Source of the DNA: Gemmatimonas groenlandica
GTDB taxonomy: Bacteria; Gemmatimonadota; Gemmatimonadetes; Gemmatimonadales; Gemmatimonadaceae
NCBI RefSeq assembly: GCF_013004105.1
Contig: NZ_CP053085.1
Span: forward strand, 2,914,001-2,978,000
DNA length: 64,000 nucleotides
Reading direction: 5' to 3'
Within the stretch, counting starts at the first letter, position 1. Every line of letters begins with the position of its first letter. A model generated the notes under the pieces. That model ran no database searches and was not told the origin of the DNA. It saw only the letters and a list, made by a program, of their open reading frames with translations. This document shows, piece after piece, positions 15,216 through 16,506 of the stretch. Both the position numbers and the translations under genes were made by a program.

Positions 15216-15333
15216 GGCGCTACGGAACAGCAACGCCCTAGGAAGCAGGGGGGAGGGTATCAGGTAAGAGGGAGGAGCAACTGCGCGCGGCTCACCTGCC
15301 TCTTCCTCCCTGATACCCTCCCCCCTGCTTCCT
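15216..15333. repeat. Palindromic element B, copy B3, left part (split by IS110)
   Basis: The left arm (about 15216-15262, GGAACAGCAACGCCCTAGGAAG) and right arm (15308-15333) pair, but the right arm stops abruptly at GCTTCCT. Its continuation (AGGGTGTT, then GGCTGTTCC) is found at 16486-16506, beyond the IS110-family element. Confidence 0.8.
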
Positions 15334-15369
15334 TGTATGTCTCCACGGTCCACGATTTCTCGTGCATCT

Positions 15370-15485
15370 TCAGGGTCGCGGCAGCTCGTTGCTCCCCAGG
15401 GCCCGTTGAGCCCGAAGCCTAGTGTGAGCGCCGCGTCACTGATCGCCACCAGCCCGAACCGCTACTTGGGGTTCGACCCCGTATC
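15370..15485 (+). ncRNA. Candidate bridge RNA region of the IS110 element
   Basis: This lies in the noncoding leader between the left end and the recombinase ATG, the place where IS110-group bridge RNAs are encoded. A 6-bp hairpin (15455-15460 with 15470-15475) presents the loop GCTACTTGG. The 11-mer ACCGCTACTTG at 15458-15468 is identical to the predicted junction of right end (16477-16485) and left end (15334-15335). A second hairpin (15384-15387 with 15408-15411) presents a loop with TGCTCCCCAGGGC, close to the target TGCTTCCTAGGGC. No expression evidence can be seen. Confidence 0.5.
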
Positions 15486-15528
15486 TCACAAGGCCGGGCG
15501 CGCGCGATCACGACCGCGTGAGGAGACC

Positions 15529-16468
15529 ATGAGCTTCATCGGCATTGATGTCAGCGCGAAGACGTTGGACGTGGCGGTCGAGGGCGGCGCCACGTGGCAA
15601 GTGACGAATGATGCGGCCGGACTGGCCACGCTGCTCGCGCAGCTGGGGCCGCTCGCGCCGGACCTCATCGTCGTCGAGCCCACGGGGCGGTATCACCAGC
15701 TGCTGGCCACGACATGCATCCAAGCGGGGCTGCCCGTCGCCGTGGTGAATCCGCGGCAGGTGCGCGACTTCGCGCGCAGCATGGGGCAGCTTGCGAAAAC
15801 AGATCGCCTCGACGCCGCGCTGCTGCTGCGCGCGGTATGCCGCGCGCGTGCAGCCGGTGCCGCGGGCGCTGCCGGACGAGGCGACGCGAGAACTGGCCGC
15901 CCTGGTGGATCGTCGCCGCCAGCTCGTCGACATGCTGAAAGCGGAGCGCCAACGCCTTGAGCACGCGCGGGCGAGTGTGCGCGGCAGTCTCACGCAGCAC
16001 ATCCGCTTTCTTGAACAGGCGCTGGCCGACGCGAACACGGATCTGGATCAGTGGATCGAACAGAGTCCGGTGTGGCAGGCCCAGGACGCGCTCTTGCAAA
16101 GTGTCCCCGGCGTCGGCGCGCAGACCGCGCATCTGCTGCTCGCGCATCTGCCGGAGCTCGGGACGCTCTCGCGGCGCGCCATCGCCAAGCTCGTCGGCAT
16201 CGCCCCGCTGGCGAACGATTCAGGGCGCTTCCGCGGCCAGCGGAGCTGCTGGGGCGGGCGCGCGGAGGTCCGCCACATGCTGTACATGGCGGCGCTCACG
16301 GGGGCCCGCCACAACCCGGTCCTGCGCGACTGCTACCAGAGGCTGCTCGCCGCCGGCAAACCACCCAAGCTTGCCCTGATGGCCTGCATGCGTCGCCTGC
16401 TCGTCATCTTGAACACCATGATGAAAACGGGCCGGCACTGGACGGTGCCGACCCTTTCCACCCCTTGA
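15529..16468 (+). pseudogene. IS110-family recombinase, frameshifted
   Basis: The N-terminal RuvC-like DEDD domain is readable from ATG 15529 ([38 protein letters not shown]). The C-terminal transposase_20 domain (LLQSVPGVGAQTAHLLLAHLPELG, then RRAIAKLVGIAPLANDSG) continues in a different frame to 16468. The break is near 15820-15840, where CTG repeats and CGCGCG appear expanded relative to the expected DAALLARYA. As read, the full recombinase cannot be made without frameshifting. Confidence 0.8.
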
Positions 16469-16485
16469 CCTTTAACACCGCTACT

Positions 16486-16506
16486 AGGGTGTTCGGCTGT
16501 TCCCGA
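16486..16506. repeat. Palindromic element B3, displaced right end
   Basis: AGGGTGTTCGGCTGTTCC continues the interrupted right arm of B3; the left arm (15222-15240) is its near reverse complement. This is the key evidence for the IS110 boundary. Confidence 0.7.

What the first reader, a model, noticed from the sequence alone, without database searches (positions are those of the whole stretch)
15332..16506. IS110-family element inserted in a genomic palindrome, with a bridge-RNA-like donor hairpin
Removing 15334-16485 restores palindrome B3 exactly (GCTTC-CT-AGGG...GTT), leaving a CT dinucleotide at both ends. In the 195-bp leader before the recombinase, a 6-bp hairpin (15455-15475) contains an 11-mer ACCGCTACTTG (15458-15468) identical to the predicted right-end/left-end junction. 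A second hairpin loop (15388-15407) resembles the target TGCTTCCTAGGGC. IS110-group enzymes such as IS621 use a bridge RNA with donor- and target-specifying loops and a CT core; here the target would be a dispersed palindrome family. The palindrome reconstruction is seen; the RNA role is inference.
Basis: partly seen in the sequence, partly recalled or inferred. Interest (0 to 1): 0.85.

Follow-up and report, generated by a model that had tools for sequence, protein, structure and literature searches.

The report
IS110 element with palindrome-targeting bridge RNA
This is a jumping gene of a known kind (IS110 group) that carries its own guide RNA, and comparison with relatives shows that the RNA very probably steers it into the ends of a palindrome repeated through the genome, much as the E. 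coli element IS621 targets REP sequences.

Summary
Window 15334-16485 is an 1152-bp IS110-group element with a CT core at both ends; removing it restores one end of a ~110-bp palindrome. A second copy (1148 bp) has an intact 311-aa recombinase; the window copy has a 4-bp frameshift and is probably dead. Near-identical copies in three sister species sit at the same position in other members of the palindrome family: at least 8 of 9 insertions.

Across 22 relatives the leader's right target guide complements the insertion site's right half (z 9.1, 0 of 20,000 permutations), the left donor guide matches the element's right end (z 8.3), and the left target guide matches the left half (z 4.8). A consensus fold (24 pairs, 13 with compensatory changes) places the guides in two internal loops, as in the IS621 bridge RNA. 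Between this element and one sister copy, 5 of 6 leader differences lie at the target guide, and the target differs to match.

The catalytic residues are conserved. It is a new member of a known kind; RNA expression and activity are untested.

The parts
15334..16485 (+). IS110-group insertion sequence, 1152 bp (equally 15332-16483, since CT is shared by both ends)
   Evidence: second copy at genome 4794264-4795411 (L002) and borders; protein family
15332..15333 (+). left CT core
   Evidence: junctions of all copies; CT in nearly all relatives
16484..16485 (+). right CT core
   Evidence: junctions of all copies; CT in nearly all relatives
15334..15512 (+). predicted bridge RNA (3' end approximate)
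   Evidence: consensus structure and compensatory changes; transcription not shown
15351..15364 (+). possible 5' stem-loop CACGA-TTTC-TCGTG
   Evidence: single-sequence fold; not part of the consensus fold
15376..15436 (+). target-binding loop: stem 15376-15387 / 15426-15436, hairpin 15399-15401 / 15411-15413
15389..15396 (+). left target guide TTGCTCCC, matches TGCTYC-C of the palindrome end
   Evidence: z 4.8 over 22 elements, 6.5 of 8 here
15416..15422 (+). right target guide AGCCTAG, complement of CT-AGGCT
   Evidence: z 9.1 over 22 elements
15452..15499 (+). donor-binding loop: stem GCCCG 15452-15456 / CGGGC 15495-15499, hairpin 15468-15471 / 15477-15480; possible outer stem 15440-15446 / 15504-15510
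15458..15466 (+). left donor guide ACCGCTACT, identical to the right end of the element
   Evidence: (z 8.3)
15488..15492 (+). right donor guide ACAAG, complement of CT-TGT at the left end
   Evidence: sequence complementarity and position; too conserved to covary
15529..15960 (+). 5' part of the recombinase gene, frameshifted near 15826-15829 by 4 extra bp
15791..16468 (+). rest of the recombinase gene, in another frame after the frameshift
16477..16485 (+). left donor sequence at the right end, ACCGCTA-CT
15240..15333 (.). interrupted palindrome, member of a dispersed ~110-bp family; its outer end continues at 16486

Best explanation
An IS110-group insertion sequence that moves by bridge-RNA-guided recombination. 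The leader encodes an RNA with two internal loops. One loop base-pairs with both strands of a target of the form TGCTYC-CT-AGG, the end of a dispersed ~110-bp palindrome; the other pairs with the joined ends of the excised circle (ACCGCTA-CT-TGT). The DEDD/serine recombinase exchanges strands at the shared CT, so the element enters without loss of target bases. Shown by sequence comparison: ends, core, target family, RNA structure, guide-target and guide-donor covariation, catalytic residues. Inferred from IS621: transcription of the RNA, the circular intermediate, the promoter at the joined ends and the strand-exchange chemistry. The window copy is probably inactive because of its frameshift, but the intact second copy could move it in trans.
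For: Same palindrome end used at least 8 of 9 times in four species. Right target guide vs target z 9.1 and left donor guide vs donor z 8.3, no permutation of 20,000 reaching either; left target guide z 4.8. 13 of 24 consensus pairs with compensatory changes, covariation score 0.437 vs 0.05-0.12 with partners slid. Between sister species the leader changes mainly at the right target guide, and the target changes with it: G400 guide TCCCTAG, flanks AGGGAG twice; G171 and G268 guides TGCCTAG and GGCCTAG, flanks AGGC four times. Both IS110 Pfam domains, IS621 chain 8wt6 at E 4.7e-32 and all five catalytic residues. The leader lies upstream of the gene and no long right non-coding end exists, as in the IS110 group.
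Against: No RNA or activity data. The single-sequence fold is no more stable than shuffles. The window target mismatches the right guide at one position and the left guide at others; the second copy sits outside the palindrome and matches the left guide poorly in the expected register. Relatives share ancestry, so the permutation test overstates independence.
Confidence: 0.93

Rival explanations
1. The protein itself, not an RNA, recognises the palindrome (its sequence or a cruciform), and the leader only regulates expression.
For: A palindrome is present at nearly every site of this element, and older literature describes IS elements as REP recognisers (PMC1525189).
Against: Guide-target covariation across relatives whose targets are not this palindrome; the second copy lies at a non-palindromic AGGCTGA site that matches the right guide 7/7; leader changes between sister species fall at the guide.
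Confidence: 0.03
2. The leader-end matches are terminal repeats bound by the protein, and the target matches are chance or simple target preference.
For: The donor match is also a repeat between leader and right end, and donor ends have a common theme (ACRGYTR).
Against: Target flanks are host DNA, yet fit their own leader and not others; the match positions fall in the loops of a structure supported by compensatory changes.
Confidence: 0.03
3. The element and palindrome spread together as one larger composite unit.
For: Palindromes are repeated and flank the element at nearly every site.
Against: The interrupted palindromes differ in sequence and surroundings; many uninterrupted copies exist; a sister species has an uninterrupted palindrome beside the same gene; the second copy has no palindrome.
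Confidence: 0.01

Closest known systems
IS621 (IS110 group, E. coli) and its bridge RNA (PMC11208160, PMC11208158)
   Same: DEDD recombinase with catalytic serine, CT core, leader upstream of the gene, target loop then donor loop with left and right guides, left end beginning TGTAT, insertion into a dispersed palindrome
   Different: About a third or less protein identity; different palindrome and guides; 311 aa instead of 326-328; right target guide pairs over 7 nt in most relatives; RNA and activity not tested here
seekRNA elements ISEc21 (IS110) and ISPa11, ISKpn4, ISPst6 (IS1111) (PMC11187229)
   Same: RNA from the non-coding region chooses the target; natural reprogramming between close relatives; REP or attC targets
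   Different: IS1111 members carry the RNA downstream of the gene and have subterminal inverted repeats; this element does not
REP-targeting IS elements such as ISPpu9, ISPpu10, ISPsy8, ISRm19, ISRm22 (PMC1525189, PMC8450116)
   Same: Specific insertion into a dispersed extragenic palindrome
   Different: Other hosts and other palindromes; the palindrome here is ~110 bp and no Y1 (REP-associated) transposase was found in the genome

Membership tests
IS110 family, IS110 group | DEDD RuvC-like domain PF01548 and C-terminal domain PF02371 | tested here: met
   both above the curated cut-off (intact copy L002)
IS110 family, IS110 group | catalytic D, E, D, D and serine | tested here: met
   IS621 D11, E60, D102, D105, S241 align to D7, E50, D92, D95, S230, each in at least 38 of 39 relatives
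IS110 family, IS110 group | long non-coding left end, short right end, no long subterminal inverted repeats | tested here: met
   195-nt leader, 17 nt after the stop codon; no end-to-end inverted repeat of 12 nt or more listed
IS110 family, IS110 group | CT core and site-specific insertion without loss of target | tested here: met
Bridge RNA (IS621 type) | two stems with internal loops in the leader, supported by compensatory changes | tested here: met
Bridge RNA (IS621 type) | left and right target guides complementary to the two target strands | tested here: met
   the left guide is weaker (z 2.8 without the core base)
Bridge RNA (IS621 type) | left and right donor guides complementary to the joined ends | tested here: inconclusive
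   left donor guide met; right donor guide complementary but nearly invariant, so covariation could not be tested
Bridge RNA (IS621 type) | RNA is transcribed, binds the recombinase and is needed for recombination | not testable with these tools
   no RNA or biochemical data
IS1111 group | long subterminal inverted repeats and long downstream non-coding end | tested here: not met
REP sequence with RAYT (for the target palindrome) | associated Y1 transposase in the genome | tested here: not met
   no PF01797 match

The most novel reading that the evidence does not exclude
The target guide drifts to follow the palindrome variant of each host species: in the Loclat genome (G400) the guide matches the AGGGA end that dominates there (19 of 29 ends fit it, against 0 to 3 for the three sister guides), a natural record of a guide RNA co-evolving with a host repeat. 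The other three species do not show such a fit.
Probability: 0.3. Interest if true: 0.5.

Novelty: new member of a known kind. Interest (0 to 1): 0.38.

Why it matters
It shows guide-target and guide-donor covariation of IS110 bridge RNAs in a Gemmatimonadota lineage and gives a compact natural series: four sister species with almost identical leaders whose differences concentrate at the target guide. Such a series lets one ask how bridge RNAs are reprogrammed in nature. The relatives also supply many further target specificities with predicted guides.

Tried and rejected
Rfam found nothing in the window, which only means that no listed family matched. Single-sequence folding gave no signal (z 0.2), so the structure rests on the alignment. 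A REP/RAYT origin of the palindrome was tested and not supported. For the second copy's site the best-scoring left-guide register (offset 53) was not accepted because the guide spacing in relatives favours offset 55, where the match is poor. Three Proteobacteria elements with leaders of 311-319 nt (L008, L010, L019) and one with an uncertain left end (L014) did not suit the fixed search windows and were left out of the permutation test; the first three gave no own-target signal. Elements without both flanks on their contig were also left out.

Full report
What is there. The window lies in a 5.18-Mb single-contig genome whose closest named relatives in the collections are Gemmatimonadetes MAGs. 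Window 15334-16485 is repeated at genome 4794264-4795411 with identical sequence except for a 4-bp gap. The two copies have different flanks and share CT at both ends, which fixes the borders. The second copy encodes an intact 311-aa protein; in the window copy 4 extra bp near 15826-15829 shift the frame. The protein has both IS110 Pfam domains and matches the solved ISCro4 and IS621 recombinases at E 3.5e-33 and 4.7e-32. By alignment the IS621 catalytic residues D11, E60, D102, D105 and S241 (PMC11208158) fall on D7, E50, D92, D95 and S230, each present in at least 38 of 39 relatives (the mapping of S241 assumes a two-residue offset in the deposited chain, as the other four residues require).

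Target. Joining 15333 to 16486 gives CCTGCTTCCTAGGGTGTT, one end of a ~110-bp palindrome whose other end, read on the opposite strand, is CCTGCTTCCTAGGGCGTT. The palindrome belongs to a dispersed family: the search for it gave 35 matches over both strands of this genome, and a pattern for its ends matched 46 times against 3 for the reversed control pattern. Other species of the genus hold many copies. All six left flanks and all six right flanks seen there are ends of the same palindrome, cut at the same CT. Counting conservatively, at least 8 of 9 insertions in four species are in the palindrome. The ninth, the second copy in this genome, lies 4 bp before the stop codon of another gene at GCTGCC-CT-AGGCTGA; G400 has the corresponding site empty. 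A further species (G395) has an uninterrupted palindrome beside the gene that follows the window copy.

RNA structure. Relatives were collected from GTDB contigs and from 395 genomes of the phylum. Most left ends begin CT-TGTAT, and most right ends finish about 17 nt after the stop codon. Alignment of 16 leaders and RNAalifold give two stems, each with an internal loop and a hairpin. Of 24 pairs, 13 have compensatory changes; 93.2% of cells are paired against 79.4% in shuffles; the covariation score is 0.437 against 0.186 in shuffles and 0.05-0.12 when partners are slid. The shuffles ignore relatedness and the slid control favours a structure derived from the same alignment, so both are somewhat generous. 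The order, target loop then donor loop, is that of the IS621 bridge RNA (PMC11208160).

Guides. For 22 elements, one representative each, the best match of every leader to its own flanks was compared with 20,000 permutations of flanks among leaders. Right target guide to core plus five bases: sum 141, permuted mean 110.6, z 9.1, never reached; without the core z 7.2, never reached. Left donor guide: z 8.3, never reached. Left target guide: z 4.8 with the core C, never reached; z 2.8 without it, 86 of 20,000. Thirteen of 22 elements have a perfect 7-nt right target guide, ten of these 74-79 nt into the leader. The elements are related, so the test overstates independence, but the target flanks are host DNA and the donor ends come in 11 types. 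In the window element the guides are TTGCTCCC (15389-15396), AGCCTAG (15416-15422), ACCGCTACT (15458-15466) and ACAAG (15488-15492). The last was assigned by complementarity and position only.

Close relatives. The leaders of the window element and of the G400 copy differ at 6 of 195 positions, the genes at 66 of 789. Five of the six lie within 11 nt at the right target guide (1.2e-6 for an even spread, the stretch having been chosen after seeing the data). The guides read AGCCTAG here, TCCCTAG in G400, TGCCTAG in G171 and GGCCTAG in G268. Both G400 right flanks are AGGGAG, a 7/7 complement; the four in G171 and G268 are AGGC and score 6 to 7 of 7; the window site is AGGG at 6 of 7 and the second copy AGGC at 7 of 7. 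G171 also has a T in its left guide that matches the GCTTC at two of its three left flanks. All seven right flanks at palindromes are AGG, whereas uninterrupted ends are AGG in 13/46, 5/28, 24/29 and 3/30 of cases in G000, G268, G400 and G171; the product of these frequencies is 6e-5, a rough and post hoc figure. This resembles the natural reprogramming reported for seekRNAs (PMC11187229).

Mechanism. Shown by sequence: borders, core, target preference, RNA structure, guide covariation, conserved catalytic residues. Inferred from IS621: transcription from the joined ends, a circular intermediate, pairing with both DNA strands, serine-mediated exchange at CT. TTGAC or TTGAT occurs in the right end of 22 of 30 relatives, at one fixed position in 21, which fits a -35 box completed by the left end in the circle; the -10 is weak and the consensus scan found no promoter in the inserted form, so this stays inference.

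Comparison and verdict. The element meets the tested criteria of the IS110 group and most of those of an IS621-type bridge RNA; it fails those of the IS1111 group. REP-targeting IS elements are long known (PMC1525189), and bridge-RNA covariation was established on thousands of elements (PMC11208160). No paper in the library joins Gemmatimonas, insertion sequences and palindromic repeats, but this library is partial. The finding is a well-supported new member of a known kind. Limits: no RNA or activity data; flanks in the sister species are unpaired because contigs break at the element; the origin of the palindrome is unknown.

Noticed in passing
window 11867-11884, 14262-14371, 15232-15333, 21431-21540, 26585-26694, 36092-36229; genome-wide: Dispersed ~110-bp palindrome family shared by part of the genus, often flanked by GCAGTTGGCAGTT-like repeats; no Y1 transposase was found in the genome, so its origin and mobility are unexplained.
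   Followed up: partly
L003, L004, L038, L039, L043, L046: Relatives whose right guide contains CGTTAG are inserted at RYYYAAC sequences resembling integron attC ends; L038 and L046 are followed by imperfect inverted repeats ending GTTATGC. attC targeting is described for IS1111 members (PMC11187229).
   Followed up: partly
L037, L064, L065, L066, L067 (genome G128): Two different IS110 elements (61% and 49% identical to this one) are inserted in the same repeat TTCGTGC-CT-TCGTGG and carry matching target guides.
   Followed up: partly
L039, L042, L044, L050, L052: In these relatives the recombinase reading frame runs to the element's end, and its stop codon TAA is completed by the target (CT|AA).
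   Followed up: no
L002 (genome 4794264-4795411): The intact second copy lies 4 bp before the stop codon of another gene, at a non-palindromic site that matches the right guide 7/7 but the left guide poorly.
   Followed up: yes
L005 / L071 (genome 4997368-4997717): A stretch matching only about the N-terminal 125 residues of the recombinase, probably an IS110 relic.
   Followed up: no
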